Shown: positions 1-64,000 of the stretch, piece by piece | How positions within the stretch are numbered: position 1 is the first letter of the stretch | Layout of the letters: each line of letters opens with the position of its first letter | Assembly (NCBI GenBank): GCA_002205965.3 | Contig: NADL03000705.1 | Span: 682,001 to 746,000, forward strand | DNA from: Kappaphycus alvarezii | Lineage: Eukaryota > Rhodophyta > Florideophyceae > Gigartinales > Solieriaceae | Direction: 5' to 3' | Length of the DNA: 64,000 nucleotides | The notes under the pieces: model-generated | Told to the model about the DNA's origin: nothing | The model's input: the letters and a program-made list of their open reading frames with translations, nothing else | The model's database searches: none | Translations under genes and position numbers: made by a program

Positions 1-1
1 G

Positions 2-274
2 GTGTCTGAGACCAGTAATGGGGAAGTAAACTTTCGACGGGTTCAACCTCGTTGTAGTACTCCGCTTTTTGTCGATCTTCAAGAGCCAACTCAAGATCAC
101 ACTGGTAAAGGTGCAGCCCTTCTTATCTTGCCAGAGTTCCTGGCCCGAGACGCTCGAGATGCTTTGGAGGCAAGCTTCGAGATCTCTGGAGAGATGGGAT
201 GTGGCTTCACAACGTGGCCCGAGGGCGTGCAGTTCTTGTTAAGAACGTACGCGAAGGACCGCTACAAAGAGTAA
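2..274 (+). pseudogene. gag-like segment of the Ty3/gypsy element
   Basis: Open stretch of about 90 residues at the left edge, upstream of and on the same strand as the gypsy protease and polymerase. It contains a plausible helical segment (FLARDARDALEASF) and no recognised nucleic-acid-binding knuckle. The assignment to gag rests mainly on position, and the true start may lie outside the window. Low-complexity, charged sequence follows to about 1.4 kb with no recognisable domain. It is a fossil fragment. Confidence 0.4.
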
Positions 275-1439
275 GCCTCCGCGGAAATGGTTTAGATGAC
301 GCAGCGTCCGAATGAGGACCAGGTATTTTTTGCTACACGCCCTAACCGGCTCGATAACGCGTGCGGAGGAGTCTACACCGACCGTAACCGTATGACACGC
401 TTCATCCGTGGAGTCCGTCCAGACATCAAGCCACTTAGACGTCTGGCGATGATCGAATTGGTGGAAAAACGCCACCGAGATTGGCGATTCACACCGAACG
501 ATGAGGCCGGATAAGCCAGCTGAGAAGGAGATGACCTCTCGCAAGGTTTTGCGTGTGTCGGTCGACGAAATCAGAAGGAAAAAGATGGTCCCGTTGGACG
601 CTCGAGACGAAGGGGAATCTCCTTCGGATGAGTCCGAGGGGAAGACCGGAAAAAAGCAGGCAGCTCGTTCGAAGAGCGCTGTGATGCTCGCAGAGGAGGG
701 ACTATATCCGCCATCAGCGTCTCCTTCGATCACGGGAAGTTTGGGGACCACGTTGTACGAGAAGTCGTTAGAGACCCCTGGGGACGCATTTGTAGTGGTG
801 TCGAACCACAACCAGTGGATTCCGGCATATGCTCAATCAACGCGCCAACAGAGGCCGCGTTAGTTGTCCTTACCGTACTAGCCGAACGACATCTGCTTTT
901 AGTGTTTCTGCTTGGGACACAAGATAACCATCTGTAGCCATCATCAGAGGTTTTACCAGGAGCAACAGCACTTGGCATTTGTTCAGGAGAACTACTGGGC
1001 TCTATCGCAAGAGCAGGAGGACTGATTGGAGAACGCAGGCAGAACGCCGTCGTTCGCGTTACGAACTCCAACCGGAGGACAGGACTGCTCTCGCCTTCGT
1101 AAAGATCAGGACATGCCCAAGAAGGCCCAAGATGGTGGGAAGAGTCGAGTTAATTGCCATCCCCACCACCCTTAACACCGCAGCAGGCGCAAACATACCA
1201 GCAATACCTAACGCCTCCGAACCCTGAGGTTCCGAAAAAGCTAAGCAGGGGGGTCCCCCTCCATCACACATTTCGAAGCCGAGGTCCCTCTTTAGCAGGA
1301 CACGCCCCGAAACAGAGCAACCCGACACACCTACGTGCGTCATGAAACGTCCTTTCGGACTACCAGCTTCAATTACTACAGGAGAATACTTGGCAGACCC
1401 GGTGATGAGGTTTTCAAAGTGCAACTATAAAATTGAAGC

Positions 1440-1880
1440 GTCCATTGGACCGAGTTTGTCATGCATGACCCTCAGGTTGACGGTGTTTGACACCGGAGCA
1501 GGCCGAGTTTAGTTCGTGCGAACGTGTTGCAAGAAGAAGTCCTTCGGGACATGGATACATCTAGAGAGAGATGGTGAATCTCCGGTCCTCATCAAAGCAT
1601 GCGTTGCGAACGCTTGGCATCGTACGAATCACCTTACAGGTGGGAGCTTATTTGACTAAGCAACCATGCATCGCAGTACGTGAAATGGCCGCCGACGTCA
1701 TCCTCGGCTGTACGTTTACCGACTATCACGTCGACAACATCAGCATCCGCAAGCGGAAGGTGGTCCCCTTGGACGGAAGCACAGTCCCTATCCTACGCAG
1801 GAGGGACGGTATACCACAGAAATCCGTGCCATACAGGACTTACGCGTTCCGCCACCTCCACCAGAGGACCGGATCCTGAG
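1440..1880 (+). pseudogene. aspartic protease region of the Ty3/gypsy element
   Basis: The motif FDTGAG at about 1486-1503 is the D-T/S-G active-site signature of retroelement pepsin-like proteases, preceded by a hydrophobic strand (LRLTV), as the family requires. It lies between the gag-like part and reverse transcriptase on the same strand. The rest of the protease is less clear. The protease would cut the polyprotein into its working parts. This copy is a fossil and is not expected to act. Confidence 0.6.
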
Positions 1881-2475
1881 AATTTCGCGTACAACGATAC
1901 TACAACCGGAAACGTAGTCCTGGGTGGACGTCTTTGCGGAAATATCAGAAGTTCAGTTCTTGGAACTGAACGACAAGCTATTTGGTAGCCAATTGGTATC
2001 ACTGTCCCCAGTCATCTTGGAAGTTCAGAAGAATGTGCCCTTCAAAGTGAAATTCGCAAACTTCGCTTCGAATCCAACGCGTCTTTCGAGACTTCAACCA
2101 CTGGGATGGGTGGTACCAGCGCCGGAGAAGACGGCTGTGTTCGCTGTCAACTTCGAAGATGAAGTCTCGTCCGCTGTAAGTGACGAGGACCTCTAAAAGA
2201 GCACAGAGAAGGCGAAGAATAAATTGCCCGAATTGGAGGGGGAGGGGCTTGCTGCCGCTTTGTCGCCCGAAATCACTCATGACGGAGTCTGGCAAGTAAC
2301 TGACGTCCCTTCCGTGGAAGAAGAGGACTTGGATCATCTGCCGAGCTCGGCTCGGTGCGAGGGTTCGCAAGATGCTCCATCCTTTCGAGGACATGTGGAG
2401 CGGTAAGCTGGGCACCCTAGGGGTTACACAGCATTGCATTACGCTTAAAGATGTAGCTAAACCAGCCTACTAACA

Positions 2476-3742
2476 GCCTAACCGCGCAGGGCCAAAATCG
2501 CGCGAGATCGAGCGACAGGAGGTCGACAAGATGCTTAAGAAGGTGATCGAGCCGTCACAGTCTGAATGGGCTAGTCCGTTGGTGATAATCCCCAAGCCGG
2601 ACCGATCGTTGATATTCTGTGTCGACTACAGAAAGCTAACCTAGATCACGGTGAAAGACACTACACCCTCCCGAGGATGGACGAATGTCTAGAATCACTT
2701 GGAGATGTGGAGTACTTCACTGCGTTGGACTGTAACGCAGGTTACTGGCAGATGCCTATCGCACCGGAAGACAGGGAAAAGACGACCATCATCTACCACG
2801 CCGATTGTTATCAGTTCCACCGCATGTCCTTTGGGCTCTGTAACGCTCCCACGACCTTCCAACGTGCAGTCGATATCCTACTCTCTAAGTTCCGATGAAG
2901 AGCCTGTGTAGTGTATCTAGACGACATCATTGTCTTTTCAAAGACTTTCGAGGACCACCTCAAAGAAATTGAGGAGGTAATGCGCGTCCTCTGTGACGCT
3001 GGAGTCACTCTCAAGTTGAAGAAGTGTTCTTTCTTCGCCCAGTCAGTGGACTACTTGGGCATAGAATCCACCCGTGAAGCTAGAAGTAGCAATGAAGAAC
3101 TTGAATGCCGTCGAAGGCTTCAAGGAACCTGTGAACCAAACATAATTGAGATAATTAATCGGACTGTGTAACGTTTACAGAAGGTTCGTGCCGAAATTTC
3201 ACGCGTACCGCACCGCTGGCTGCGCTCCTGCAGAAAGGCCAGGACTCCGAGTTGAACCTGTTCAGCGAGGACGAGATAGAAGCATTCGAAATGCTGAAGA
3301 ATGCGCTCGCCAACCCGCCGATACTTCAGCTCCCCCGGATGGATCTTCCGTTCTCAGTCGACACCGACGCATGCGACTACCAGGTCGGTTGTGCGTTGAT
3401 GCAGACGCATGAAAACGGGAAGAGGTACCACGTCAGATTCTGGAGTAGAAAGCTCTCAGGAGCCGAGCTAAACTACTCCTTTAGAGAGAAGGAATGCCTA
3501 GCTATCATCTGGGCGTGCTAAATCCTGAGACTTTATCTCGAGCGTACGCTCTTCGATCTTTACACTGATCATCTGGCCCTGAAATGGCTCATGACGATAA
3601 CATATGCAGCTGGACGTCTCACAAGATGGATAATTCGTTTGTTGGAGTTCGACTTCACGGTACACTACCGTAAGGGGGCGAAGAACAACATCGCGGACGC
3701 CTTGACGCGGCTCCCTACTTGAGGATACACAGCGAAGGGTCC
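2476..3742 (+). pseudogene. reverse transcriptase and RNase H of the Ty3/gypsy element
   Basis: Clear Ty3/gypsy polymerase signatures follow in order: a region that binds primer and nucleotide (SEWASPLVIIPKPD, about 2560-2610), FTALDCNAGYWQMPI near 2717-2760, FGLCNAPTTFQR near 2830-2865, the YLDD catalytic box near 2915, and KKCSFF near 3018-3035. RNase H follows, with the D-T-D-A-C-D segment near 3360 and the A-D-A-L-T-R-L-P end near 3700. Known role: it copies element RNA into DNA and removes the RNA strand. The homology is strong although the copy is broken. Confidence 0.92.
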
Positions 3743-4129
3743 CGACCTGGACATTCCATCTCCTCATAGGAGCTGGGGATCCAGCTGATCAGGTCGATTG
3801 CCTCGAGGTCGAGCCGCTATGGGTCGTGAAACACGAAGAAGAAAAATGGGAAGTCGAACCACACGACTGAGAGGACGAGCACGAGTCCTAAAGTCCCCCG
3901 GGACCGGCGTGGGATGAGGTATCAGCCGTTGCTCGAGCCGGGCTGAGCTCGCTGAAGGTTGAAGACCCTCTGATGTCTCATGCTCGAGACTAGTATTGCC
4001 AAGAGTTAAAGAAGGTAATTGAGAGAAAGGAGCCGATATGGTTCAGGGAAGACTCGAGGGGTCTCATCCTAAGACTCTCGCCAGTCGACCGGGCCGTTCA
4101 AGTCGCCATACCGAAGGAATGACGTTCGA

Positions 4130-4990
4130 AGGTGCTGTATATGGCACACCACACAGCCCTCACAGGGCACCCCGGCGGTACAAGGATGTACCACACGTTA
4201 CGCCGGCAAGTCTACTTTCCGTCGATGTCGACCGATGTGGTCAAGACAACACGGAATTGCGCAAGGTGCGCTTAGGAGCGAGTCAAGTTATGCAAACATG
4301 TGTCGTTCTTGAAGCTGTTCCCAGCGACGCAGCCTCCGGAGTTCGTAGGCATTGACCTACTAGGTCCGTTACAACGCTCCTCGAGCGGGAAAGAGTACCT
4401 ACTATTCATAAACGAGAGGTTCTCCAAACTACCGAAGACTTGTGCCGCTTGCTACGGTTTCGGCCTACACGGTTGCAAAGGCATTTTGGGAACACTGGGT
4501 GTTACACTGTAGAATCTCAGGTTACGTCCTGTCGGAAAATGGTGGCAAATTCGCCTCGAAGTTCTTCCAAGCCGTGTGTACGAGCCTCGGGTGAGGAACC
4601 TCGTTACGTCCGCGTACCACCCGCAGACAATCGGACAAACAGAGCAGTTTAACCGCACCATCCTAGCCGGATCCGGCACTTTGTGGCTGAACACCAGCGG
4701 GACGGGATCAGTTCTCACCGGGGCTGACTTATACCTACAATACTACAGTAAATCGCGGAATCGGATGGCTACGTTCGATCTGGTCCTGAGTCGGCCCCCG
4801 AAACTGTTCTTCATGGAGAACGCCGAGGAAGTCTCGACTGAGAGACCCACGCCTCGAGAGGCTAAGTTGTTTTTTGGAAAGACTTGGACGGTTGATGGAG
4901 ACAGCGGTACCGAAGCTGAAAGCCACCCAAGCCCACAAGGCGAACTTTGACGCAAGAGTTCGTCCACCGAACTTTGAGTTCGTCCTCGGA
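4130..4990 (+). pseudogene. integrase of the Ty3/gypsy element
   Basis: The zinc-binding region (HTALTGHPGG, then the NCARC cysteine pair near 4255-4270) is followed by the catalytic core: FVGIDLLGP near 4340-4365, HPQTIGQTEQFNRT near 4617-4657 with the catalytic glutamate, and a typical FDLVLSRPP segment near 4775-4805. After it comes the ANFDARVRPPNFEFVLGQYVFLE-type C-terminal segment to about 5015. Integrase joins the DNA copy to host DNA. The copy has several breaks and is treated as a fossil. Confidence 0.9.
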
Positions 4991-6119
4991 CAGTATGTCT
5001 TCCTGGAACGGAGTCTAAGGTCGACGAACAGGAAGGGAACCTTTACACGAAAGCACTGGGTCCGTTCAAGGTCCTACGGACAGGAAGTAACACTGTTACT
5101 ATTTGTTGTCACGACAAAGACGACCAGCAGGATACATTATCTCTCGACCGCGTGGTGCCCGCGCCCACGCCGGAACCTCGGCTCCCTACGTTGGTAGAGG
5201 AGTCGGCAGACCGTACAGGAGAAGGAGGCATAGGGTCTCCCCGGGGAGCGCCCTCGCTCCCGAGAGCCTGAGATAGGCGTGGTAACTTGCTTAAGCCCGG
5301 TGAAGGACGAGGGTTCAGCGCAAGAACATGCGCCGGGGAGCCCTGCAGGGATTATGGAGAAGGATGGGGAGATCCTCTCCCAAGGCGTGGCGATGACGCT
5401 GCTAGGATCAGCAATGACGAGGTCCTCGCGGACAAGTCACCTCAGCTCGAGGCAGAGGAGTGAGAGTCTACGGTAGAAAACGAAGTTCAGTGAAAGGGCC
5501 TGCACAGGAAGAAGACAAGTGAACCAAGTCCCTGTCAGGGACAGTGCCGCGTCGCGTAAGCACGGCTTCGGTCGACGTTGAGTTGGACAAGGGGGAGCAG
5601 GAAGCTCCTGAAAAGGAAGGCACAAAAGTATCCCGGAAGGACAAGCAAGGCTCTGAGGTGCAAGATACACCGGCGGAGAAGGAAGTAACGGGGCCCCGCC
5701 CCAGGGCAGGGAAGTTTACAGTGAGAAGTCCAGCCAGGAACGCTATTCGCGGAAACGGTTCCGCACGGGTCGAACAAGCGACTGGGACACCCGTTACAGG
5801 AATTGCAGTAGGGGGCCACGTGATGACAGGAAGGGGGCACGTACCCCCAGGTATGACCTAAGGTCACGTGCCAAGTACAGTATGGGGTCTGTTGAGGATG
5901 GCTTTTCGGAAACAGCTCTCCCTCGGAGACCAGACCTGGCGCCTGATACTGGCACAAGCTTCCCGACCGCGCGGGGGCCTGAGGATCAGGAAGAGGGCCC
6001 TGGGGAGCAGTATCGGTCCGAAGCCCTACGCATGGGCGATGCCGTAGCTTTCAGAGAGGGGCCATCAGAAGACGATACCCCTCATGACACTACTGTAGCC
6101 GCGGCGCCTTGGCCGTTTT

Positions 6120-6290: not shown

Positions 6291-7900
6291 CCCGTAGACC
6301 CGAGTCCCTTCGACGGGAGAGATCCCTCGGGATGCCATGTCAGAAACCGACGTTGCAAGGTAATCCTCTTGAGGTAGCGAGCTGCGCCACTCCACGGTGT
6401 CCAAGTGCATCCAATCCCCACGGTCATAGACCGGAGTCTGGGTCTCTGTTAGGACAGGGAGATGACGTCTCGTTGCCGGAATACGGCTCCAATTGATAAT
6501 GGTAATTTCGTCCAGAAGGGCCTCCAGATCACAGGCATCACTCATTGTAGCACACAGCGCTGAGGTCCCCACACTGCGAATCAGGGCACGGAGGTCATGC
6601 TGAAGGAAGTGAAGGGTTCCTCCTTGAGCTTCATACATGAGTTCTTTAGCCACTTCGGCGGCCCATTACCAACCGAAAGCGCCCCATTGTTGGCTCTCGG
6701 GATCGCTCATGAGGTTTGAGCACAAGTACGTGACGATGCGTGGGGTCTCCACTGCAAGTCAGTAATTGACCTCCAATGGTGCAAACCAGTGTGGGACCGC
6801 CAAGTAGCGCTGCGAGAGTCGCTCACGGCGGACGCACATGGCTTCCTTACAATGCGTGGGGATGAAAAAACCAGTCTTGTGGCGGAGCTTGCGTTCCTCC
6901 CGCCGACCTGAGCGGGGCATATGGGTGTACCCGTTGTCCACGTTCGTTGGACTCTCGCAAGGGATGGCACTTGCTCTTAGCGAATGATAGGACGCCGCAT
7001 GGCGAACACAAGTGCCCAGCCCTTGGGGGACCGCCTTTTGAAACAAGCCAAGGCGCGGACGTACGACTCCTTGTATTCAAAACGACCGAAGGCCATGTCC
7101 AAGCCCCAATCCGGTGGAATCAGGAGACGTGTCCTGTGGAGCACTTGTAGACGGTTGCGGAGTGCCTTGTCCATGTTGAGCCCCGGAGGCTGATGCCGCT
7201 TCAGCGAGGAGTTTTTTTGGGCCATACGCACTACGAAACTGCCAGTCCCAAAACTGGGACACTGCACGAGACAATCCGGGGGCCACCTCCACAAAGTCGT
7301 CCAGAAATGACGACTCTTGTCCACTGGCACCGACGCCCGGGGTTCCATATCCTCCTGTGGCCTCCGCCTTGGGCTGAACCGGTTCACTCCGAGGCTCCAC
7401 TGGACTTCTCTTGTAGCATCGGCGGGCCCTGTAGGGGCTTGAGACAGCGAGAGACCAACGCACAAGGCGGGCTGAGAAGACGAAAAAGGAGTTGAAGTTC
7501 TAGCCGCCGGATACACGGAGGAGGCCGGGGGCCTTGTGTTGATGATTGAGGCCGTACCGGGGCGGGGACACGGAAGTCTGAACGTTAATTGGGAGGTTGA
7601 GAAGAGGAGCCAGTGCCCGGGACGGGCTGGTAAGAAGGGGGTGTAACGGCCGTCCTTTCGGCGCTGGAGTACTCATGTGACCGAGGAGGAATCGAGGTCC
7701 ACGGTCGCGAAGAAGTGGGATACGGGTTGGTCACCGCCTAATAGGGTCGTCCCGCCCGATAGAAGGGGGATCAACTAGAGGGCCGTGTCCTCGGTAGGAC
7801 TCCGGCGAACGCTCCTGACGGCGTCAATCCGCGTAGGGATCCGAATAAAACGGGTCGTAGCTTCTATACGAGGCTTCCGCCCGTGAAAAATGGGGCTCCG
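6219..7900 (-). pseudogene. gag-like relic of an unidentified retroelement family
   Basis: Minus-strand coding pieces between the plus-strand gypsy element and the minus-strand Copia element. A Pro/Ser/Tyr-rich front (about 7900-7150) is followed by a segment with PPDWGLDMAFGRFEY near 7130-7090, RLSQRYLAVPHW near 6815-6780, a long helical stretch ending in LEALLDEITIINW near 6535-6480, and a YDRGDWMH-type segment near 6430-6400. The same order and short motifs (PDW, RYLxVPxW, LxxLLxxI, YxxxGD) occur in the plus-strand gag-like region at 61.4-64 kb, so these are probably two copies of one family. It is broken in several places. No enzyme domain is present, so gag is an inference from composition and position. 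Confidence 0.5.
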
Positions 7901-8022
7901 AAGTCGAACAGGGCGAAAGGGAACGACATATTCTTCGCGATGTTCCTCCGCGAGGCGGCAGCTTGTCGGAAAGACGAAGGACGGTCTCCGTAAGGATCTT
8001 CGTACCTTGGAGTTGCCGAGGG

Positions 8023-39120: not shown

Positions 39121-39125
39121 TCATG
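39121..39125. repeat. target-site duplication TCATG, right
   Basis: Exact match to 34433-34437 on the other side of the element. The LINE relic probably resumes to its right for a short distance, but no clear reading remains. Confidence 0.85.
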
Positions 39126-51065: not shown

Positions 51066-51070
51066 AACTA

Positions 51071-51580: not shown

Positions 51581-51588
51581 GGTACACG
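51581..51588. repeat. 8-bp target-site duplication, left (GGTACACG)
   Basis: GGTACACG stands directly before TAGTGATGG and matches GGTACACA after the other end (54336-54343) at seven of eight positions. Eight base pairs is the hAT duplication length. Confidence 0.7.
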
Positions 51589-51719
51589 TAGTGATGGCCG
51601 GTAAAAAAATATTCCATGACAGGCATTTAATAAATGAAAATATTCTATTACCAGGTAATTTAATTCCCTCCCGGACCAAAACAGGAATTATTACCTCAAA
51701 AGTAATCGTCCGCCCTTCG

Positions 51720-52062
51720 CATAGATCTTTTTATCCCTGGTGCATATGGCCTCGACCCGAAGGATATCGCTTTGGATGTCACAGTGGCCCATCCACAGGT
51801 CACTTCTCGCGTTTCCCAGTGTGCCCTATCTGGCGGCGCAGATGCCTCAATGGATGAACGTGCGAAACACACACAATACGGTCTAGTCTGTCACACGAAC
51901 GATATACGCCTTCTTCCTGTTGGTATTGATGTGTTAGGTGCCCTTGGGCGAGGGTGCGACTTTCTTCCGGCGCCTTTCTACGTTTGCTGCTGCCCGTCGA
52001 GGCACCACTCCCCAATGGGAGCTGCACCTCCTAATCACGCGCTTTGTGTTCTGCTTGCATGA
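51720..52062 (+). pseudogene. LINE C-terminal fragment, restriction-like endonuclease tail
   Basis: The plus strand reads LDVTVAHPQVTSRVSQ near 51768-51815, then ERAKHTQYG near 51859-51885 and IRLLPVGIDVLGALGRG near 51903-51955. LINEs of the R2/CRE type end in an endonuclease whose second motif is a V-D-V-T/A-x-x-H/x-P strand, followed by a basic K-x-x-K-Y segment and F-x-P-x-x-x-x-x-x-G-x-x-G. The order fits. Only this tail is present, on the strand opposite to the other LINE piece in this nest, so it comes from a separate insertion or an inversion. Confidence 0.5.
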
Positions 52063-52264
52063 GTTGCAAGCGCGTCAAGTTCTTACCAGATGAATTTCCG
52101 ATTAGTTCCTCTCTCATCCCCCTTCGCAAGTTAGTTTCTCTGTAATCCCCCTCAGCATGTTCTCTCACATGCTTTTTCCAAATTCCGTAAAGATTACACA
52201 CACATCAAAAGTAATTTATGAAGTCATAGTCATAATTATTTCTATGACTTCATATTTTAATGAC

Positions 52265-52707
52265 CTAGTGTCTATACGACCATGCTGTGTCCTCATATGA
52301 GGCACAATTTGTCCTCATATGAGGACAGTTTCCGTTACATTTTGGAAAGGTAAATGTTTTGGAAGGCCGAAATTTTACTGGAAAAAAAGGTTTTTCATGT
52401 TAAGGTACAGTACAGTAATTTTACTGTACGTGCGCCCTCGTTTCTGAAACCCCCGTGATAACGAACTATTTTTCCTTCCAAAATGTAGTCGTTTTCACAA
52501 CTTCTTGCGAAGAGCGGAAGCTGGTGAGTGAAAATTGCTCTAGGCTTAACCGAGGTCAACAATCTTGAAAAGTTTGTTTTGATCGGCCATCTACACTCAT
52601 GAACTAATGCGGAGGGACAAGAAATGCGCTGAGGTAAAAAGAATTGTATTGAAAAAAAAGGGCTAAAAGTTGTCCTCATATGAGGACAACGGTCCAATAG
52701 ACACTAG
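52265..52707. mobile_element. MITE, copy 2 (443 bp), inverted relative to copy 1
   Basis: The ends are CTAGTGTCTATACGACC on the left and GGTCCAATAGACACTAG on the right, with GTCCTCATATGAGGAC palindromes just inside both ends, as in copy 1. Base by base it follows the complement of 28842-29286 with only a handful of differences, so the two copies are closely related and recent compared with the elements around them. CTAG follows again at 52708-52711, consistent with a 4-bp target duplication. It interrupts the hAT-like element. Confidence 0.92.
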
Positions 52708-52910
52708 CTAGTCATAATTATGACCAGCTTGGTCATTAATTCCCCGAAAAAATTAATTCCCCGTGATGACAAACGGAATAGTTCCGCACTGTGCTATGCA
52801 GTACTGTACAGTGCATTACATTACAGTGTAAGGGCTGGGACGAAGGTGCAATATGGAGTGAAGATGAAGAAGTTTAATGCATTCAGTATCTACTGGGGAC
52901 TGCGCGCGTT

Positions 52911-53720
52911 CTAACTATATGGGTATGATCTAATCTGATGTATCTCGTCGTCCATGCGCATCGGGGCTCGGGACAGAATAGCTGAAGCAATAGATGACCA
53001 GAGGTTGCAACTCAGTCGCTGGTAGATACGACGGCGGATAACACCAAGTGTCAAATGACACTTGGGCGCGATCCGTAGAACTAACTCCTCGATAAATGCA
53101 ATCGTACTAGGACAAGGGTCACCCAGGGAATCAAACGCTAGAGGTCGAAACATGAAGTTCAGCGTGTAAAGCGCAGTAAAGCGTAGAAAAAGGTCCAACT
53201 GAGGGAGCGGGAGGCGTCGAGCGAGGATGCGTTTCAGAATTGTAACATTGTCGAGGGCCACCACTCAAGCAGCCCCACCGGCTACGTGGGTCGCCTTGGT
53301 GCGAACTGCGACCTTAAACGGTGAGAAACCAGTGATGTCACACGCAATAGGGCAACGTTGTGTCTTCCGGGTGAGATTGGTTATAAAAGGATATTGGCGG
53401 GCCGGCTTAGTGCCCGAAACGAGGAGCAAAGCCTCGTGCCAAGTATTCAGATCCGCGCGCGGCTAACCTTGTATCGCAACGGATACAGAGCGAGTCATGG
53501 TGGTGACTTCGGCCGAAACCAGGGCAGCATAGGTCGGCGGCGTGATCCCAGAGGGTCCAAGGGGTTGTCACAGTAGTGGCAGTTGAGGGGCATGGAGTCA
53601 TCATATACTGGTAGTCCGAGGTGAAGGCGGAGCATGGTCTGCCAGTTTGTGGTGTGCACCCTCATTGCTGCCGTTGTTGAGCGAAGATAAACGCCGCAGA
53701 GAGGCTGCGGCAAAACTCTA
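52911..53720 (-). pseudogene. LINE C-terminal fragment, zinc-finger part
   Basis: The minus strand carries NWQTMLRLHLGLPVYDDSM near 53650-53595, followed directly by CHYCDNPLDPLGDHAADLC-type text near 53585-53530 (two Cys pairs with a D-x-x-G-D-H-A core), then SHHHDSLC near 53510-53487. This is the Cys/His-rich block between reverse transcriptase and the endonuclease tail in R2/CRE-type LINEs. The continuation to about 52911 is mostly unreadable and contains stops. It is probably the same LINE family as 33.6-34.4 kb, by analogy and not by direct overlap. Confidence 0.55.
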
Positions 53721-54335
53721 AGCCATGGATGCGATGCCGACCGTCAGCATCGCGATGGCGGTCAGGTTCGATGAATTTGCCGAGGATTCGTCGTCCTAAT
53801 GTACTTTTGCCCGCACCTTTTCCTGCACGTGTTTGAAAAGGTTTAGAGTGTTGGTGAGTGATGTGGCTATTTGCATCTATGTTCAAACTGTGCCATTGTA
53901 GGCAATAGTACAGAATACTGTAAAATCATGACTTGCTAGGGATAGCAGGGTGGTCAAGTCATAAGTAATTAATTACTCTCCGGTCATGAAATTCTGGGTT
54001 TGCGGTAAGTGAATTTTTATTCCAGTAGAATGAGAGTAGTAATGCAGTCATTATTTTTAATGTAACAGTGCTGTATTTTATTGTAGGTAGGTAAGTAACT
54101 GTTAATAGTAGTAATTCTGCCATGGTACATTCTATTGCTCCCAGGTAATAATTTGGTAATCAAGTCATTAATTATTTTATTACTGTAGGAAGTCATTAAT
54201 TCCTTTTTGATTTCATATGCACAGGTAGGGAATAAAATGACAATTATTCTGGAATAATTCTAATACAGGGGATTGAAAATTTTTAAATTTTTATGTACTT
54301 AAAATTCTATGACCAATAATTCCCCGCCATCACTA

Positions 54336-54343
54336 GGTACACA
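54336..54343. repeat. 8-bp target-site duplication, right (GGTACACA)
   Basis: Directly follows CCATCACTA. It differs from the left copy in the last base only. Confidence 0.65.
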
Positions 54344-55105
54344 TATGTGAGCATTTTCCAATACGGAAATCATAACGACACATTGTGCTAGTACCGTCCA
54401 GTGACACTGTAATTTGTGAACCAAATAAGCATTAATGTACTCATCCCGTCTGAGAGTGTAGGGAATCATTTATTTCAAAAAATTAACGGGCCCGCTGCAA
54501 TTAACGGGTAGACGCTTCAGAAGTTGTCGATGTGGGACAGTCTACACAAGATACGGCATCCGGACAGCGTGGCTTGGGCATTAGAGGACCAGATCGAGTA
54601 GCTAAGATGCTGTCCGGTCCGGCGTTCGGCTTCGGCGTGCTTACGGGCGATTTAAAGGCGATGCGACCCAAATATATATTCGCAACAAGAACTAACTGCA
54701 CTACAATTTACGCCAATCTTGGTCTCACTCAAAAAGTCCTTTCAAAATCGTTGATATCTTCCCGAGAGGGCTATGCACGCTTCATTTTTGCCTTTGTATG
54801 CCAATCATTCCAACAAGCAGAGCAAATTGCTTGCCTGCAAGTGACGCTGCTCTGATTTTGCTTAGATCCTTTTCTTGTTACCTTGGGTTTATTCCCTTGC
54901 ACCCATCGCAAAGTCCAAGAACACATCACACAGTATGTTGGATGTGCGCAGGCTTTTATGTGTTCAATTCGCTTGCTCAGTCTCCTTGCCTTGTGAGGCC
55001 CATAATTATACTGGTTGGAAGCGTCCTTGCTGAAAATGGCATTATTATGTTGGACTGCTTGAATCTAGTTTTATCGGGTACGCCTTTGTCCCTTTTGGTA
55101 ACCCA
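54344..55105. other. unassigned region right of the hAT-like element
   Basis: The rest of the interrupted Tc1-like transposon would be expected here, but no catalytic transposase text was found. A 107-codon plus-strand frame (54532-54855) shows no recognised motif. Nothing further is claimed. Confidence 0.4.
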
Positions 55106-55109
55106 TGCA

Positions 55110-58020
55110 TGAGTTAGAGCCCTGAAAAATGGCCAAATGTCTCAGTCTGTGATAATCGATGCCAGAAACAGGCATATCCTCTGTTCTCTCTGTTTGATAG
55201 CCCATGTGTATGAGGTAAGATCTTGGCGGCTCTGGCAAGGTAAAATCTGCACACAAGAATTGCACTGCTTACTTGAATACATGGAAGCCGCCCAACAATT
55301 GAAACAAAAGGTTTCTCGCTTATGTTACAGCGGGCATTAGTCTTTATTTGATGAGATAACACGTCCACATCCCTTTCAAATGATTCCGGTACACAGTAGG
55401 CATTAATCGTATCATACGACGGGGGTATGGGAGTGCCTTTTGAAAACACTGTGCGACGCAAGGCCTAACTAAGGTTGTAGTAGGACATAAAACTGTAAGT
55501 ATTCGAAGCATGTGATTGCTTCAGTAGGGCATACTCCTTCGGAACATACTTCCCCTCTCCTCCGATCCATTCAAATGAAACTCGAAGGACACAGTCTAGA
55601 CAGCACTTTTACTTGTGTCTGAAAACTTCTGCGAACTGAATGACGCATGCATATATGCGTTCCTCTTTCATTGAACCTTCGGTAACAACTACAAACAATA
55701 CTCCGTTCACACCCAAAGTAGTGACATGATGGAGAACTTGAGCCCGGTACTGTGTAGTTGGACAACTTCTCTAAAGAACTCATTACAGGATTCATCGTGA
55801 CCAAATTCTTCAATAAATATCAATAACGGTACTTCTCGGATATCGGTTGCCGAAAAAAATAGTTCCTACGGCTTTCATAGTTCTGATTTCAACTGGAAAC
55901 GCAGTAAAATCATCGTTTTCATCTTAAATAGCAACGACAGCATCCGGACTATTAGTAAGGATTTCGTAACTTCTGCTCTCTACCAGTCCGACTTGGCGTA
56001 CATGTTAGATCGTAAAAGCCTTTGTGCTATCCAACAGAATAATGAGGAACCGTACGGCCTCGCATAAACCCATGCTGATCTGAGAAAAACGTAGGAAATG
56101 AATTTAGAATCTCTACCTCATTTAGACCCCTTCGCGCATTCTCATAGCTGCTTCCAGCGATTTCATGACCCAGGCGGAGAGAGATTGAACGATAATAACC
56201 TACTCTTCGAATAACCCGCTATTCTGTTTGCCATGTCCAATCGGGTGTTTGATTCTGTAATAACCTGTTTCTCTGTAATAACGTGTGTCCTCACTCCCAA
56301 TAAACAAAGGATAGAGGTCCAACGTTCTTTGATGAACTGCTCTGCTTCACAAGGGGAGGGATGGAAAGCTGATTCCCCAGGCGAGGCAATCATGCCCGCA
56401 AGTCCGAATGCAATGCCTTTCACGTACTGCTCGAAATGTCTAGCCAATGATAAGATAAAACCATGTCCAGTCCGTGATGTGAATCTTAATGCACGAAGCA
56501 GGAACCAGACGGGATCTTCAGACTGCAAATAAGTTAACTGTGACCTCACCCAAGCACTCAATCCACAATGTCCTCCCCAGTGCATCCTATTGGTGGCATC
56601 ATTGCTGCTCATGTTAGGGAAAGATCCTCAGAGTCATGCCCTGCTCTTCATCAAATACTTGGAGAACTTCGCTAATCTTAACTAAAAAGTGGTGTTCTTT
56701 AGGTGTCTTTGATAACCCCAGGTAATCTTCGTGATGAAAAGAGCGTAGAGTTATTATGCATCATCGCAGCGATCCTTCCAAAGCAAAACTCATTGTACAA
56801 GCTGGCCTGAACAGTCCTTGCGTGCCTATTTGATCCGGAACTTCGCAAACGAGCAGAATATATAGCCTGAAAACCCCGTTCCGACACCACCATACCACGA
56901 TTTCGTCTTGAAATCATGCCCTTCCCAAACAAAAAGGGGTACCACAAGTCTCTCTTGTGGGTACCAAGGAGACTCGCGCCTAACACATTAGAAACAAACG
57001 GAATCGTCTCCTTGGAATTGTAGCCGCGGTCTGCAGCTATCACTGCGTCATGAATCTGGCGCAATACTCCCGTTTTAGACGCCTCTTGGAGAAGTTGCAT
57101 CAATCGTTCCCATGAGTGTATTAGCTCCTCCCCTGATCTAGTAAAATGACAACCAATAAAGAATGGGTTCAAAGCTAAAGAATGCGCGCTCCCCACAGGA
57201 CCAAGACCCTTTTTAGGGTTATTGTGTTTCTGCATGTACGTAAGCTCTGTTACTGCTCTGGAAGTCATTCTCAGGTGGTCTTCATCAAGGGATAGAGCAA
57301 TTGCGTGTGGAAAATAAACAAGGTGCCTATTGATAGCAGCTGTTTCAGCCTCCATTTCCGTAATCATAGCAGTTGTCTGGTTTGCGCTACGGAACTATAC
57401 AGTGCTTGAGTAGTTATGGGTACTTAGTCTCTCCTTACATCCGCTCAAGGCTGCCAAAACCTCATGATAACGATCTGCTACGAATCACATCTGCGAGAAG
57501 TTGACCCGCTCATTCTCATTGCAAATTGCAGTTGGAGATTCATTGTGGGCTGTGCACAACACTTGCAGGATTACAACCCCTAATATTTATCTGCGTCGGT
57601 TTATCTTTTTCCTTGCTGATGCAATACACGGTTTGCGGAACATTTTAGTTTTTCTAAGAGTCAATCAGTTAAAAACGTCTGCACCAGGCTTAACGGGGTT
57701 AGTTCTTCGGATCAATTCACATCCCCAGTGCTAATGTTGTTCTGCCTTGCCTTAACTTCAGCTGTAACGTTTCCCAATACTGTATTTGCTTCGAAAACAA
57801 AACTTTCTCAGGAGTGTCATTGAAATCGCCAATATTGACTGGTACGTCCTCGAACGGATGGTTGCAGTTTCAATCTTCTAGTCCAACCTCTTGTTGGGAA
57901 GCTGCTCTACTTTAAAGTTCCTTCTCAGCAGTGTTTTCGCTTAATACTCTGATCGCTTCCTCCACGACTTCTTCCCAGACTGAACTAGTATATCTCTCAT
58001 CATCGAAGTCATGGAATATA
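55110..58020 (-). pseudogene. DDE transposase of a DNA transposon, D-R-G-Y type, superfamily uncertain
   Basis: Minus-strand coding text from about 58010 down. An N-terminal Lys/Arg-rich stretch is followed at 57367-56699 by 222 open residues with ALSLDEDHLRM (first acidic site) and AVIAADRGYNSKE (second, in the D-R-G-Y context seen in IS4-like and related eukaryotic transposases), then LGASLLGTHKRDLWYPF. The frame ends with FCFGRIAAMMHNNSTLFS. A further 149-residue stretch (56612-56163) and a shorter one (55461-55114, CVPESFERDVDVLSHQIK) continue the same strand in other frames, so the gene is interrupted by frame changes or introns. Terminal repeats were not found. It is not clearly Tc1, hAT, PIF or MULE. 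The right end abuts the stem-loop array. Confidence 0.6.
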
Positions 58021-58109
58021 CGTCTACGGAGGTCCTAGCAGAGTTAACTAGAAGATACGACAACCCTTGTGTGGTGCAACTGTCCTGCAAACCACTGGAC
58101 GGAAACCAA

Positions 58110-61100
58110 AACCAACACGAAGGTCACACAAACCTTCTAATCGAGTGGTGGAAGGACGAACCACGGGGCGTTCGAGTTCCCCCTTTCTTCTTTAAGGAGC
58201 TTTGCGAGCTCCAGTAGCTCTTACACACGCGGAGGTGTGTGGGTGGTAGAGATTGAAGGACGGCAGAGGTTGCCAGAGTGCCTTGACTGCACTTAGGCCG
58301 GGTTGTAAGGCCGATGGCCTTTGCGGTCCTTGAACTAATGGCGGTAACTAGCCACGGAGAGCAACCTCGGTGTTGATCGAAAGTACTCCTGCGGAGTGTT
58401 GGCACGCGGCCAACGATGAGAAACCTTGTGTCTCTACTGGACACCGTCCTGAGAAGGACACGGACCCACTTCCGAGGTATCGAACCTGTGCCATCGGCGA
58501 AGCACCTTCCTCACCCGGAGTCGCAACTCCGCTGTGAGGGCGTCGAGAAGTACGGGACGCACCCGTAAACCCGGTAACAGGGTAACGGTGAAAACCGTTA
58601 GTAAAAGAAAGGAAAGGCGAAAGCCTTTGTTGGAATGCAGTGGGACACCCAAAGGATTGGTGTATCGGTACACAAAGGGGACCGAGCCAAAAAGGCGTTG
58701 CAGAATGCCAAGGAAAGCTTTTTTTCTAGGAAAAGACTTTGACCAGAGGGTGCGACTCCCCCCCTCCCCGGTTCGTTTCAAGTCAAGTTGGTGAGCTCAC
58801 TTAAATAACCCCACTCGACACAAATACAAAAGGCCTCGCGACCTTTTTAGACTAACTAACACTAAAAGGTGTGTGGCACCTTACAAACAACTACAAAATT
58901 GGTGCCACCCACTGTAAAGTACATTACACTACACATGTACGACTATGCACTAAATACAGTGTGCCATCTTGGCCAAAATACAGTCCACCTGGGGCTTACC
59001 AGATTTTCTGCTAAGCCGTAAGCTGAGCTGTAGCGCTGGGGGAGGCCTAGCAGATTTTCAGAAAATCTGCTAGTGCATTGCACTACATATCCCCTTCTGA
59101 GCGTGCCCGTCGACATCGCCCATTCAGTCCAAACCAGCACACACAACCAAATTCACATCCATGGACACCAGTTTCCATTTCCCTTTTGGAGCCGGAAGGC
59201 TATTCTCCAACACGGAGAATGTCACTTGACATTGCGTAGTGAGCCTCGGTGATCAGCCGATATAATGCTCTGCATGACTCCCGGTTTCATGTAATAACAA
59301 TCATCCATCCACTTGGGTCGCAGGTCGCCAAGGACCGCGGTTCTTACCCCTTTCATCATTTCCATTTAGACGTAATGACAAAGTTGCACTGCCAACCTTC
59401 TTCAGAGTGCCATCGTGGCACTCGTTCGTCCAGAACGAACTGAATTGGGAAACAAACCGGTTTCCCCCCTTAAAAAGGGGGAAGCGGCCCTATGTGGGTT
59501 GCCTGGCGCGTGATGCTACGCATCTCCCATCCTCACGCTCGCCCGCAGGCGAGGCGACAAGGTCGCACGACCGGGGAGTACTATACTCCCCTCCACAGCC
59601 AGTATCCTTAGTAAAGTGGGCTGATCCTTCCCAAAGTGAGGGACCTCCAACGCGTGATACAGCGTATCCCCCCCCCGACTTACTCTCATGAATGAAGTAG
59701 ATGATCCCTCCCAAAGTGAGGGTTCTCCCAAAGCATGATGCTTCGATGCGTCCCCCCCAACAGTTAAGGCCAAAAAGTTCGCCTTGCCCCAGCCTGGGTC
59801 CCTCCCGACAAAGGGACCACCATCTCTTGTTGTCTTGCAACTCCCCCCCCAAACGTGTTGGCAATCCAAGCGATTGCAGGCCCCCGAATGGGTGGCCCAC
59901 TGCCCCTTTTAGATCTGGCGATGATATATGAGCGTAGTCCAAAATGACTCGCAGGGAGCCCATCCCCTAATGGCGCAAAGACCACCTTCGGTCTTGTGCC
60001 TTGCGCACTCATACCGAGGCTCGCAATGGAGTCCAGGCGAAAAGCCTCATATGTGGCTTCCAGCAAATCCTAACGGATTCGCGCACGGCGGCGGCTTGGG
60101 CACTACGGCGGCGATGCGTGCGCACACTGTACCGTGCACGCAACGTCGGCGAGGTGCCACGTCGTGTATACATATTCCAGGAGGGTGCGCTCCACCCTCG
60201 ACTTGTCAAGTCCATCGACTGTTGTGCACGCGACACAACTTGCTACTCTGCCTTCGACATCGTCAGTCGACTTTCTCATTGCTGCTAAGAAGCATAGGGC
60301 TTCTTCCTTATCACCTCCATCCGGCTCCGGCCAAGGTCCTCCGTGGCCTTCATGCTTCGCACGCGCCCCCAACTGCTTTTCCAACTTAGTGAGAAGGCAA
60401 CTTCTCACTGCGGAAATCCTTGTCTGCCTGGTACACCCTAGGAGATCCGTTCTCCTCAGGCCCATTACGGGTCTGCTTTTCCGCTCTTCTCTTCTCCGTT
60501 TGATCGGAGCTGGTGTCTTGCCACCAGGTGCACATCGCACAGTTTGCACTTTCGTGCGGGGTCTTTTGTGATCCTTCTCTTGGCTACTCTTCTTTTCCTC
60601 CTCCGTGAGAACTGTGGGTCATCGACGACTCACCTGCGCAGGGCAGCTTAGTTCTGCGAGAAACGACTGTTTCTCTCCCTTGTCTTTTGGCCATCTTGCC
60701 GAAGTGCTAAACGCACTTTTCTCTCGTCTTTCTCCCATGTTCATCTTGGATCTGCTCTCACACTTTCCTCGAACGAGGGAATGAGTCTTCTTTGGCTCAC
60801 ACGCACAGGTTTGGGTGATACGTTCTTCGAGAAGCACTGAGCTTCTCCCCATTTGATTCTCTCATAAAGCTTGGACTTAGAGCTTTCGCACTTTCGTGGA
60901 ATCATAAAAGGACTTAGTATACTTAATTACCTAGAGACGTTATCCCTGCGAGACTCCGACCTTGCCCCGGCTTCTTTTCCCTGTTTGGGAGTGTGTCCTT
61001 GCGGCACACTATCAAAAGTCCTCTAGTCGCTTGTGACTAAGACCACTTCGAGGGTCTACTTGAACCATTATCCACGGACAAAAAGGGTATTGCAAACCCT

Positions 61101-61345
61101 TACGTTTCGCCTAGGTTTGGCAGGACAGCTCGTTGTCCTTTGTGATAGACCCTTTCAAGTTCCACTGGAGAGCTTGCCCCGAAGTTAGTAGGGCACCCGT
61201 TTCCTAGGAATACGTGGTGAGCAAGTTCAAAAGTGAACTTGGGAGGTACATCCAAAGTCGCCGCCTTCAAGCGAAAAGCTTGAACTCTTGCTGAGGAGCT
61301 AACCTAAGGGAGTCGGTTTCCTTCCAAGTGAGTTGTCACACTTGT
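58110..61345. repeat. array of short, mutually different stem-loops
   Basis: By eye this 3.2 kb contains more than 30 perfect hairpins with stems of at least 6 bp and loops of 3-9 nt, where about six would be expected by chance. Examples: 58119-58137, 58196-58212, 58223-58240, 58307-58321, nested 58509-58539, 58583-58600, 58613-58628, 58866-58882, 59047-59073 (12-bp stem CTAGCAGATTTT, loop CAG), 59202-59220, 59465-59481, 59797-59818, 59861-59877, 60181-60199, 60287-60305, 60388-60409 (9-bp stem, loop GCAA), 60658-60675, 60829-60847, 61083-61101, 61122-61139, 61222-61241, 61266-61284, 61325-61344. Stem sequences differ, so this is not a simple repeat. It lies immediately upstream of the gag-like region and may be its LTR plus leader. 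Confidence 0.8.
59622..59850. repeat. three tandem units, each hairpin-hairpin-C run
   Basis: Units begin at 59622 (TGATCCTTCCCAAAGTGAGG), 59702 (TGATCCCTCCCAAAGTGAGG) and about 59796 (GGTCCCTCCCGACAAAGGGA). Each opens with a CCCTC/GAGGG-type stem-loop. A second, different small hairpin follows: GATAC-AGC-GTATC, AAGCA-TGA-TGCTT and GTTG-TCTTG-CAAC. Each then has a run of seven or more Cs. Flanks are conserved while the second stems differ, yet each still pairs. Confidence 0.75.
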
Positions 61346-61433
61346 TGTTTGGCGTGTTAGTTCACTCAGAACGAAATTGGACACTGCGACGTCGGCCAAT
61401 TTGTGTGTGCTATCACAGTCGACCATTTTGTGA

Positions 61434-64000
61434 TGTCGAACGGGGCACAAGACGCACCGATAGGGGAGATAAATAGGCGCGAGCCTAGAGCCAACGTAGG
61501 TTCCTCTGACGCATTTCATCAACGAGAAGCTCAGCTATTCCCCTACTCATCGTCTGAATCAAACGATTCGCCCAGCATTCCCCACATAACCCCACAAATG
61601 ACTCGCTCAACGCAGTTACAAGATCAGACTGATCTTCCCGCCGACACGCCAACTACACAAGACGCAATGTCTCGTCCTTCGTCTCGTCCTACTGACCCTC
61701 GTGGTCGGGACCCATACCAAAGGGTCACCTCAGCAGCTCCGTCAGCACTCTCGAGTGGCGGTCCGTCACAGCCTTCAGCAGCTGGAGGTTGGCATACCTC
61801 GTGCCCAGGAGATGGGGCCTATATGAGGGACCCCTATAGGAACTACGGCTCCTCGCCTTATGCCTCAGTTGCTCCGGCATATGCACCGCCGCGGTCCTAA
61901 GGCTATGAAGACAGTCCTCGGACTTGGTCGGCTCCCTCCGACTATAGGGAACTTCCGTCGATTCCTCGGGTCGACCCTTCTAGGAGCGTGTAAGCAGGCT
62001 CGAGTAATCAATATTACTCCTATGCACCATCTGGTTGGACCTCAGGCCAAGCCTATAGGCCTCAGGAGCCAGCTCCTGTGTATCCTGCAATAGCCCAATT
62101 CCAGGGTTATGTGTCCGTGAAAGAGAACCCGCTTCTCTTCTTCGGTGCTAAATGGTTTTGTCCGAACGGCTCACGCGATATCCAAGGAATCGCTTCAGAG
62201 TTTGCCGACTATGCAGGAAATCTTCCCTGTGGCATTCCCCTTGATGCCCTCTCCACACCGGACTGGCGTCTCCGCTTGGTGGTTTCGGCCTCAGACCTTA
62301 ACAGGCATAGCACATTCTCTGGTGCTACGATGATTATTCGGTTCATGTCGGCAGTGGACGACAGGCTTAGAATGCCTACGACCACCAGAATGATACCTGT
62401 TGATTATGGATCCGATACTTGGCAGTATCATACGGACGACGAGTCGTACTACTTGTCCGAGATGATGAGATGGGGTGAAGATAACCCATAGGCAAAGCCA
62501 ATGCCTGGTGGAATGGATATGACGGCGTCTCACAAGAAGCTATGTTCTGTACAAGGCCACTGGTGCCTTTGAATTTCAAACGCATTAGGCGTGAGGACAT
62601 CTTGTTCTTCACCAAGACGGTACGATTCGAACTACGTTTCCGTTCGGATAGCGGCTATTTTGTCGCTTACCAAATGGTAGAGGCTGCTCACTTCAATCGG
62701 GCAGCTTTAGCAAACCGATATTTGCATGTGCCTTCATGGTGGCAGGACTGCGAGGTCCCGCAAGGCTTCTGGGCAGAACTTCCGCCCGTGTACACCTAAT
62801 TCGGTACACGTCTGCAAGATCCCAAGTCCGGCTTGTGGACGGTCTTTATGACCGAATGGTGCCTTACCGGGGCCATTCACCTGGCCTGGGAAGTGCACGA
62901 CCTGTGGAGGTTGTGGTTTCTGCCCCCAGCTCTCATCAGGCTCATGGAACAGTTGGACTACTCCGGTCCATTTGGCTCTTCGGCCATGAAGGAAGAAATC
63001 CACAATCTCTTGAGGATTGTCAAGACCATCGAATGAAACTTCCTGTCGTCCCACAATTGTTCTAGGGATCCGGTTAACCCTTGCCCTAGCTTGTCGCCGG
63101 GGCTTTACCACACTGAGGCTGGTGACTATGTGTGGTTTAATCCTTCCACAGGGCAACGCTGCTCGAGGGAGGAAGCAGAGGGTGGTCGTGCACCCTGGCT
63201 TTCCAGGCGAGGACGCAGCCTCGCATATCGAGACTTGGACGCAATTCCGTCCTTTTCATCGTATCAGCGTCCTCAGGTCGCCGCTGGGCCTTCGACTCCC
63301 AACACTGCTCAACCAGAGCGGGAGCATGGAACTCCCATAGTAGAAGAACCGCCGTCTGAGAGGAATGCTTCCCCTCCTCCTGTACAAGACGAAGAAGTCC
63401 AGGAGATAGAGCATGTTACGGTTCCCAATGAACCGAATGCACCACCTCCGAGTGGTGGGGATTCCACCATGAATCCCCGTCAAGTGGACGCAGCTGGTGA
63501 ATCGAGCTCTGTGCCTGTGGATACTCTGATTCCCGTTCCCATTGAGGGAACACCCATGGCTCCATCGGCGGGTGAACCGGCGTCACCTCAGCGCCCTTCG
63601 TCCCCACTCCCACCTCGGCAGGTATCCCCGCGGGCTCTTATATCGCCCATCAGGAAAAACAGGCGTTATCTCAACGCCAGGTCAAGTCCTCGCTTGGCTC
63701 AGAAAGCCGCCACCCAGGCGGGAGCTCCAGTTCCAGGACCCAGTATTGCTGGTCCCTCCGAGCAGACTTCAAGTGGACAGACGGGGCGTTCACCTTTGGC
63801 TCCGAGGTCGAACTCACCGATGCCAATACCTGCATCCCCGGCCTCCGTGTCGTTGCAACAGGGGCAAATGGTTACCCCACCCACGACCTCTAGTGCTCTG
63901 GCACCAGGCTCAGGGAGTAACTCCCGAGGGGCTCGAAGTCCTCTCGCACTGGTGTACCGCCAGGCGCTTATGCGTCGTGGCGTGGACGTGAGTGCCTTGG
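61434..64000 (+). pseudogene. gag-like coding region of an unidentified retroelement, runs off right edge
   Basis: Plus-strand coding pieces start at ATG 61434 (MSNGAQDAPIGEI). A Ser/Pro/Tyr/Gly-rich, disordered front with DPYRNYGSSPYAS near 61815-61860 comes first. A folded part follows (LLFFGAKWFCPNGSRDIQG near 62120-62175, TPDWRLRLVV near 62255-62285, RYLHVPSWW near 62718-62745, HLAWEVHDL near 62880-62905), then a helical LEE/LLR segment to about 63036, a GDYVWFNPSTGQ segment near 63120-63155, and a long Pro/Ser-rich tail to the edge. Motif order matches the minus-strand relic at 6.2-7.9 kb. It is broken, with a few breaks. No protease or polymerase lies in the window, so gag is inferred from composition, paired copies and position behind a structured leader. 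Confidence 0.5.

What the first reader, a model, noticed from the sequence alone, without database searches (positions are those of the whole stretch)
58110..61345. Dense array of non-identical short hairpins
More than 30 perfect stem-loops with 6-12 bp stems lie in 3.2 kb, where about six are expected for random sequence (seven loop sizes x 4^-6 per position). About twelve have stems of 7 bp or more, where one or two are expected. Stems are unlike each other, so this is not one repeat family. Loop sizes are mostly 3-7 nt, as stable RNA hairpins prefer. I know of no LTR retroelement leader described this way. The pattern could serve packaging, dimerisation, dsRNA-sensor avoidance, translation control or copying.
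Basis: partly seen in the sequence, partly recalled or inferred. Interest (0 to 1): 0.88.

Follow-up and report, generated by a model that had tools for sequence, protein, structure and literature searches.

The report
Hairpin-packed RNA of a mobile element
A decayed, unclassified repeat element in what looks like a eukaryotic genome is packed with about a hundred short, mutually different hairpins, in its untranslated part and through its protein-coding part alike, much as RNA phage genomes are.

Summary
In 58110-61345 there are 42 perfect hairpins (stem 6 or more, loop 3-9) against 4.95 +/- 2.13 in dinucleotide shuffles; with stems of 7 or more, 16 against 1.4. Mirror and direct repeats show no excess. 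If one mismatch is allowed, the adjoining reading frame (61346-64000) is as dense as the leader, 13.1 against 11.6 extra stems per kb, and the excess survives codon shuffles that keep the protein (z 5.7 and 4.3; three other coding stretches of the window 0.6, 0.1, -0.8). So the array runs from about 58.1 kb to about 63.5 kb and uses synonymous sites. Seven single-stranded RNA phages have 5.4-9.8. My reading: the RNA of a mobile element folded along its length into short local hairpins; what selected for this (compaction, staying single-stranded) is inferred. 'LTR retroelement leader' is not shown: no LTR or reverse transcriptase was found for it here. The reading frame is broken. Covariation could not be tested: the own-genome search did not complete, and relatives exist only as three protein fragments.

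The parts
58110..61345 (+). Non-coding half of the array: 42 perfect hairpins (37 non-overlapping), mostly 6-7 bp stems with 3-6 nt loops; 61 non-overlapping hairpins if one mismatch is allowed
58119..58137 (.). First perfect hairpin (6 bp); 57001-58000 has none of 6 bp or more with loops 3-9, so the array starts abruptly near 58.1 kb
59047..59073 (.). Longest perfect hairpin, 12 bp stem, 3-nt loop
60388..60409 (.). 9-bp hairpin with GCAA loop
59622..59739 (+). Internal duplication (59622-59658 and 59702-59739, 84% identical); the second copy holds a one-mismatch hairpin (59703-59725)
60353..61432 (+). ATG-poor stretch before the reading frame: 2 ATG against 7.5 in dinucleotide shuffles (P 0.007), reverse-strand ATG 12 against 9.2; suggests a scanned 5' untranslated region in + orientation
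61433..63999 (+). Broken reading frame (probable start 61433, 88 nt after the last leader hairpin; runs off the window). Stops at 61898, 61991, 62797 and 63034 and a frame change near 62.49 kb (a stop at 62489 in the first frame). Matches protein fragments P0001, P0002, P0003
61346..64000 (+). Coding half of the array: 16 perfect stems of 6 or more (3.9 expected) and 47 one-mismatch stems of 7 or more (15.1 expected); 41 non-overlapping hairpins
6729..6902 (-). Remnant of a distant relative of the reading frame (34% over 58 aa, E 1e-6, with a stop inside)
1..5500 (.). Weaker hairpin excess near that remnant: 19 perfect stems of 6 or more against 8.5 (none of 300 shuffles reach it), no excess at 7 bp or more; may or may not belong to the same family

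Best explanation
This is a decayed copy of a mobile element whose RNA was folded, from its untranslated 5' part through its first gene, into a continuous series of short, separate, mutually different hairpins (about one per 58 nt, covering a third of the bases). Shown: the density, its run through the reading frame, the use of synonymous sites, the lack of a clear shared loop motif, and its absence from three other coding stretches of the window. Inferred: that selection acted on the element's single-stranded nucleic acid while it was active, for general local folding and not for one recognised sequence. The likeliest benefit, I think, is that such an RNA is compact enough to be packaged with the adjoining protein and stays single-stranded, without long duplexes against itself, its copies or its complement; stems of 6-9 bp are short enough for a scanning ribosome and a copying enzyme to melt.
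For: Hairpin excess 8-fold in the leader; similar total density in leader and ORF once one mismatch is allowed, 11.6 and 13.1 per kb; sliding scan places the excess at about 58.1-63.5 kb with its highest z (7.9) at 62001-63000, inside the ORF; codon-preserving shuffles leave z 5.7 and 4.3 in the two ORF pieces against 0.6, 0.1 and -0.8 in reverse transcriptase, integrase and superoxide dismutase ORFs of the window; codon-preserving folding energy z -7.1/-6.1 (two strands) for 62494-63999, against -10.4 to -11.7 for MS2 and Q-beta replicase genes; an LTR element in the window has no excess (2 against 5.7); no clear shared loop motif; one of 42 stems exceeds 9 bp. Q-beta work describes strong intramolecular structure as a way for single-stranded RNA to avoid duplex formation (PMC6913131, abstract).
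Against: One locus only; no covariation test. No strand signal that would prove RNA: one-mismatch stems with G-T are about as common as with A-C over leader plus ORF (20 and 17), and the plus-minus folding difference is also seen in two of three control stretches. Folding energy for 61433-62487 is weak (z -2.0/-0.8) and a control integrase ORF reaches -3.0 on one strand. The copia reverse transcriptase control, flat for stems of 7, has 4 perfect 6-bp stems against 1.6. Packaging is not shown; the protein has no known family and its predicted model is unusable (mean pLDDT 30.5).
Confidence: 0.5

Rival explanations
1. The hairpins are made by mutation: template switching (by the element's copying enzyme or the host polymerase) turns imperfect inverted repeats into perfect ones each cycle; they need have no function.
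For: In the leader, perfect stems are a larger share of the excess (0.40) than in any of the seven phages (0.16-0.32); stems are unrelated to each other; template switching can make perfect stems in one event (PMC8794818, abstract and Discussion read).
Against: In the ORF the excess is carried by synonymous choice while relatives still align with it at 54-75%; leader and ORF have similar density; an LTR element in the same window has none. The strand-fixed switching model in PMC8794818 favours G-C and U-A pairs, whereas 5' arms of the leader have G over C (83:47) but A over T (71:45).
Confidence: 0.15
2. Dispersed packaging signals: each hairpin is a degenerate binding site for the adjoining capsid-like protein, as proposed for MS2 and satellite tobacco necrosis virus.
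For: Many hairpins of similar size beside a possible structural protein; such systems are described for ssRNA viruses (PMC6281560, PMC4751978; search listing with the start of the abstract only).
Against: No loop motif stands out clearly among 102 hairpins: the best 3-mers are in 8-11 hairpins against 4-9 expected; the best 4-mer, ACGC, is in 4 against 0.6, one of 256 looked at. The protein is not shown to be a capsid.
Confidence: 0.15
3. Integrated DNA copy of an RNA virus or RNA replicon that copied both RNA strands, so both had to fold.
For: Density and strand symmetry resemble ssRNA phages; no reverse transcriptase found with it; sharp 5' border near 58.1 kb.
Against: No Pfam or PHROGs match that would show a polymerase or viral family; a 3.3 kb non-coding 5' part would be unusual (general knowledge); the relatives found are also short fragments of one long frame, as in an old repeat family.
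Confidence: 0.1
4. A DNA-level feature: hairpins act in single-stranded cDNA or extruded duplex DNA.
For: Perfect Watson-Crick stems serve both strands equally; no clear G-U preference.
Against: ATG depletion on one strand only before 61433 fits an mRNA; 6-bp stems are short for cruciform extrusion (general knowledge).
Confidence: 0.1

Closest known systems
Single-stranded RNA phage genomes (MS2, Q-beta, PP7, AP205, GA, SP, PRR1)
   Same: Many short local hairpins through coding sequence, beyond dinucleotide shuffles and, in 4 of 5 genes tested, beyond codon-preserving shuffles (PP7 replicase P 0.08); folding signal equal on both strands in the two genes tested
   Different: Lower density (5.4-9.8 against 11.6-13.1 extra stems per kb); smaller share of perfect stems than the leader, larger than the ORF here; 75 of 128 loops are 3-4 nt, while 5 nt is commonest here; no 5'-arm purine bias. 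No PHROGs match of the protein; the DNA was not compared
LTR retrotransposon genomic RNAs (Ty1, Ty3)
   Same: Structured RNA with a 5' untranslated part before the first gene
   Different: Ty1, Ty3 and HIV-1 RNAs are A-rich mosaics of structured and dynamic regions, highly structured parts up to 30% in Ty1 and Ty3 and about 40% in HIV-1 (PMC11381356, abstract and section 29 read); here no LTR was seen and hairpins run through leader and ORF
Palindromes in nematomorph mitochondrial genes
   Same: Many inverted repeats inside coding sequence (PMC6649704, search listing)
   Different: Those are up to 284 bp long; here stems are mostly 6-9 bp
Dispersed packaging signals (MS2, STNV, parechovirus)
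   Same: Multiple hairpins along one RNA (PMC6281560, PMC3662417, PMC5431903; listing only)
   Different: Those share a recognition motif (recalled); no clear one was found here

Membership tests
LTR retrotransposon | Two long terminal repeats flanking the element | tested here: inconclusive
   No direct repeat of 40 nt or more in 46000-64000, but the element runs off the window
LTR retrotransposon | Reverse transcriptase, RNase H, integrase, protease | tested here: inconclusive
   None in 58100-61669 in six frames nor in the ORF pieces; sequence beyond 64000 not available
LTR retrotransposon | Primer binding site complementary to a tRNA | not tested
   No test made
LTR retrotransposon | Gag/capsid protein | tested here: inconclusive
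   No Pfam match at E 0.01; Pro and Ser are the commonest residues; structure prediction pLDDT 30.5
Hairpin-packed RNA genome (as in ssRNA phages) | Local hairpins far beyond shuffled sequence | tested here: met
Hairpin-packed RNA genome (as in ssRNA phages) | Structure imposed on coding sequence through synonymous codons | tested here: met
   Hairpin count in both ORF pieces; folding energy clear in 62494-63999, weak in 61433-62487
Leviviricetes (actual membership) | Replicase, maturation and coat genes | tested here: not met
   ORF pieces and relatives: 0 PHROGs families in 8 proteins, no Pfam match at E 0.01; leader frames no Pfam match at E 1
Known structured RNA family | Match to an Rfam model at gathering score | tested here: not met
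   0 of 4227 families in the whole window; best weak match HgcC 24.8 bits against 50
Dispersed packaging signals | Shared loop or stem motif bound by the coat protein | tested here: not met
   No clear loop motif in 102 hairpins; best 4-mer in 4 of them. Binding itself not testable

The most novel reading that the evidence does not exclude
A lineage of eukaryotic mobile elements whose whole RNA, coding and non-coding, has evolved an RNA-phage-like fold of short local hairpins on both strands, denser than in any of the seven RNA phages measured here: a second, independent invention of genome-wide hairpin folding, in an element that lives as DNA in the host genome.
Probability: 0.3. Interest if true: 0.85.

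Novelty: new variant of a known kind. Interest (0 to 1): 0.62.

Why it matters
RNA-wide local folding is known from RNA viruses; the retroelement RNAs compared in PMC11381356 (Ty1, Ty3, HIV-1) are described as mosaics. An element with hairpins along its leader and first gene, laid into synonymous sites, would be a natural test of why RNA genomes fold: packaging, avoiding duplexes, or ease of copying. It also gives a simple sequence signature (perfect and one-mismatch stems with loops of 3-9 nt, against codon shuffles) for finding such elements even where no gene is recognised.

Tried and rejected
Rejected: low complexity or local composition (block, Markov, mirror and direct controls flat; unreversed complementary repeats are not). 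Rejected: one repeat family. Rejected: a hidden coding region in the leader (six frames with X at stops, no Pfam match at E 1). Rejected: known RNA families. Rejected: regular spacing (CV 0.66 against 0.76 random, P 0.20). Dropped: using mismatched stems to date the copy, because in the seven phages, which are not decaying, mismatched stems are an even larger share than in the leader. Plus-strand preference from folding was set aside because two of three control stretches show it too. The purine bias of 5' arms is strong for perfect leader stems (0.63, P 0.0003) but weaker when one-mismatch stems are added (leader P 0.03, ORF 0.23, both 0.011). Led nowhere: viral-contig scans for the ORF, its relatives and one hairpin and a genome-contig scan found no related DNA; structure prediction of one ORF piece.

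Full report
What was checked. With stems of 6 or more and loops of 3-9 nt I find 42 against 4.95 +/- 2.13 in 300 dinucleotide shuffles (maximum 11), 16 against 1.36 with stems of 7 or more and 5 against 0.32 with stems of 8 or more. Thirty-seven do not overlap. The excess sits in short loops: 6, 8, 14, 5, 3, 4 and 2 hairpins for loops of 3 to 9 nt, where each expects less than 1; over loops of 10-20 nt it is 12 against 7.3. Controls: 120-nt block shuffles expect 5.4, order-2 Markov sequences 5.1; mirror repeats are 6 against 5.0 and direct repeats 5 against 4.7; repeats complementary but not reversed are 12 against 4.3, which I cannot explain fully (perhaps purine and pyrimidine runs in the arms). 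Each of the eight 400-nt blocks is above expectation, the weakest being 59710-60109 (3 against 0.67, P 0.04).

Where it begins and ends. 57001-58000 holds no perfect hairpin of 6 bp; the first is at 58119. When stems with one internal mismatch are counted too (7 or more positions), a sliding scan of the whole window puts the excess from about 58.1 to about 63.5 kb, with z from 2.6 to 7.9, the highest at 62001-63000; the last block, 63001-64000, has z 1.7. The peak is inside a reading frame, not in the leader. In total, 61346-64000 has 4 perfect and 47 one-mismatch stems against 1.0 and 15.1, an excess of 13.1 per kb; the leader has 16 and 41 against 1.1 and 18.5, an excess of 11.6 per kb. The halves differ in perfection: perfect stems are 0.40 of the excess in the leader and 0.09 in the ORF. 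Together 102 non-overlapping hairpins cover 34% of the bases of 58110-64000. The scan also shows shorter rises elsewhere: 4.5-6 kb (z 2.5), 16-17.5 kb (2.8), 20.5-22 kb (3.3), 23-24 kb (3.4), 28.5-30 kb (3.3), 32-33 kb (3.2), 43-44.5 kb (4.0) and 51.5-55 kb (4.6), so rises of z 3-4.6 over 1-3 kb are not unique here; a run of 5.4 kb reaching 7.9 is.

The reading frame. It probably starts at 61433, 88 nt after the last leader hairpin, and runs off the window; stops interrupt it at 61898, 61991, 62797 and 63034, and the frame changes near 62.49 kb, where no relative is available for comparison. Three protein fragments from a source coded lgn match it: P0001 (54% over 61667-62284), P0002 (75% over 62848-63456) and P0003 (58% over 63337-63999). 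P0001 and P0003 both list a longest contig of 3228 bases, perhaps the same one. The relatives run through three of the interrupted places (61898, 61991 and 63034), so this copy is a decayed one; the relatives are themselves fragments of one long frame. None of the pieces or relatives matches Pfam at E 0.01 (one chance-level match at E 0.5) or PHROGs, and the structure prediction is unusable. A remnant related to 62623-62796 lies at 6902-6729 on the minus strand (34% over 58 residues, E 1e-6 against the window).

Structure laid over coding sequence. Shuffling synonymous codons, which keeps the protein and the codon usage, leaves 23 stems against 7.6 (z 5.7) in 61433-62487 and 25 against 11.3 (z 4.3) in 62494-63999. 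In the same window a reverse transcriptase ORF has 7 against 5.6, an integrase ORF 6 against 5.7 and a superoxide dismutase ORF 1 against 2.0 (perfect 6-bp stems: 4 against 1.6, 2 against 1.3, 0 against 0.4). RNA phage genes have z 3.2 to 4.0 (MS2 replicase and maturation, Q-beta replicase and maturation) and 1.6 (PP7 replicase). By folding energy against the same kind of shuffle, 62494-63999 has z -7.1 on the plus and -6.1 on the minus strand, 61433-62487 only -2.0 and -0.8; controls are reverse transcriptase -0.6/-0.3, integrase -3.0/+0.5, MS2 replicase -10.4/-10.4 and Q-beta replicase -10.8/-11.7. So the second ORF piece is clearly structured; the first is so by hairpin count but not convincingly by energy.

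Comparison with known structured RNAs. Perfect hairpins of 6 bp or more, observed and expected: leader 42 and 5.0; ORF part 16 and 3.9; MS2 13 and 4.9; Q-beta 23 and 5.8; PP7 24 and 5.3; AP205 21 and 6.8; GA 9 and 4.9; SP 20 and 6.2; PRR1 18 and 5.1; E. coli 16S 4 and 2.1; 23S 5 and 3.2; the LTR element at 34435-39125 2 and 5.7. Counting one-mismatch stems, the seven phages have 5.4 to 9.8 extra stems per kb, 16S 4.5 and 23S none. By this measure the element here is above the seven phages. Ty1, Ty3 and HIV-1 RNAs are described as A-rich mosaics of stable and dynamic regions (PMC11381356, abstract and section 29 read).

RNA or DNA, selection or mutation. A one-sided ATG depletion just before the frame (2 against 7.5, P 0.007, in 60353-61432; reverse strand 12 against 9.2) fits a scanned leader in plus orientation, but 59501-60350 is rich in ATG (15 against 9.3) and a stretch on the minus strand elsewhere is as poor, so this is moderate evidence. 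G-T and A-C mismatches in stems are about equal over both halves (leader 10 and 5, ORF 10 and 12), so the stems do not tell which strand matters; MS2, Q-beta, AP205, GA and PRR1 are near equal too, while SP (16 and 4) and PP7 (9 and 5) lean to G-T. The 5' arms of perfect leader stems are purine-rich (0.63, P 0.0003), which phage hairpins are not (0.44-0.51). This is not what the published template-switch model with fixed strand would give (G-C and U-A excess; PMC8794818, Discussion read), since A exceeds T here. The synonymous-site result speaks for selection and against a purely mutational origin. No loop motif is clearly shared, which speaks against a single recognised packaging signal.

Mechanism. 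I take the element's RNA to have been selected for general local folding. The likeliest gains are compactness for packaging and staying single-stranded while copied; intramolecular structure as protection against duplex formation is described for RNAs replicated by Q-beta replicase (PMC6913131, abstract). These steps are inferred. One of 42 stems is longer than 9 bp, which would let ribosomes and copying enzymes pass.

What is not known. The element's class is open: no LTR or polymerase was found with it, a primer site was not tested, and it runs off the window. Paper searches for hairpins in retrotransposon leaders and RNAs showed no title or abstract that describes such an array, but I saw only the listed rows: 12 of 12, 15 of 231, 12 of 1,060 and 10 of 23; the library lacks most subscription papers.

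Noticed in passing
window 6729-6902 (-) and 1-5500: Decayed distant relative of the element's reading frame (E 1e-6), with a weaker excess of 6-bp hairpins further along (19 against 8.5; in 1-5600, 10 of 19 non-overlapping ones have 3-nt loops; no excess in 5601-8000, 3 against 4.1). May be an older member of the same family.
   Followed up: partly
window 28842-29286 and 52265-52707: Two copies of one element in opposite orientation (pieces of 213, 157 and 72 nt, 91-100% complementary) carrying perfect palindromes of the type TGTCCTCATATGAGGACA.
   Followed up: no
window 34435-39125: LTR element with an integrase domain on the minus strand and end repeats 88% identical in two pieces; copia-type by eye. 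No hairpin excess, used as a control.
   Followed up: partly
window 31275-32204: Open reverse transcriptase frame of copia type (Pfam RVT_2) on the plus strand, 70% identical to P0004 over 83%.
   Followed up: no
window 44897-45478: Copper/zinc superoxide dismutase domain in one open frame (Pfam E 5e-25).
   Followed up: no
window 43001-44500 and 53501-54500: Further stretches with an excess of one-mismatch hairpins (z up to 4.0 and 4.6); relation to the element not tested beyond the protein and DNA self-searches.
   Followed up: no
window 58110-61345: Complementary but not reversed short repeats are also in excess (12 against 4.3); not explained.
   Followed up: no
window 9533-11207 (-): Remnant with an integrase zinc-binding match below cut-off (17.3 against 25.5 bits) and, by eye, a protease-like stretch; probably another retroelement.
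   Followed up: no
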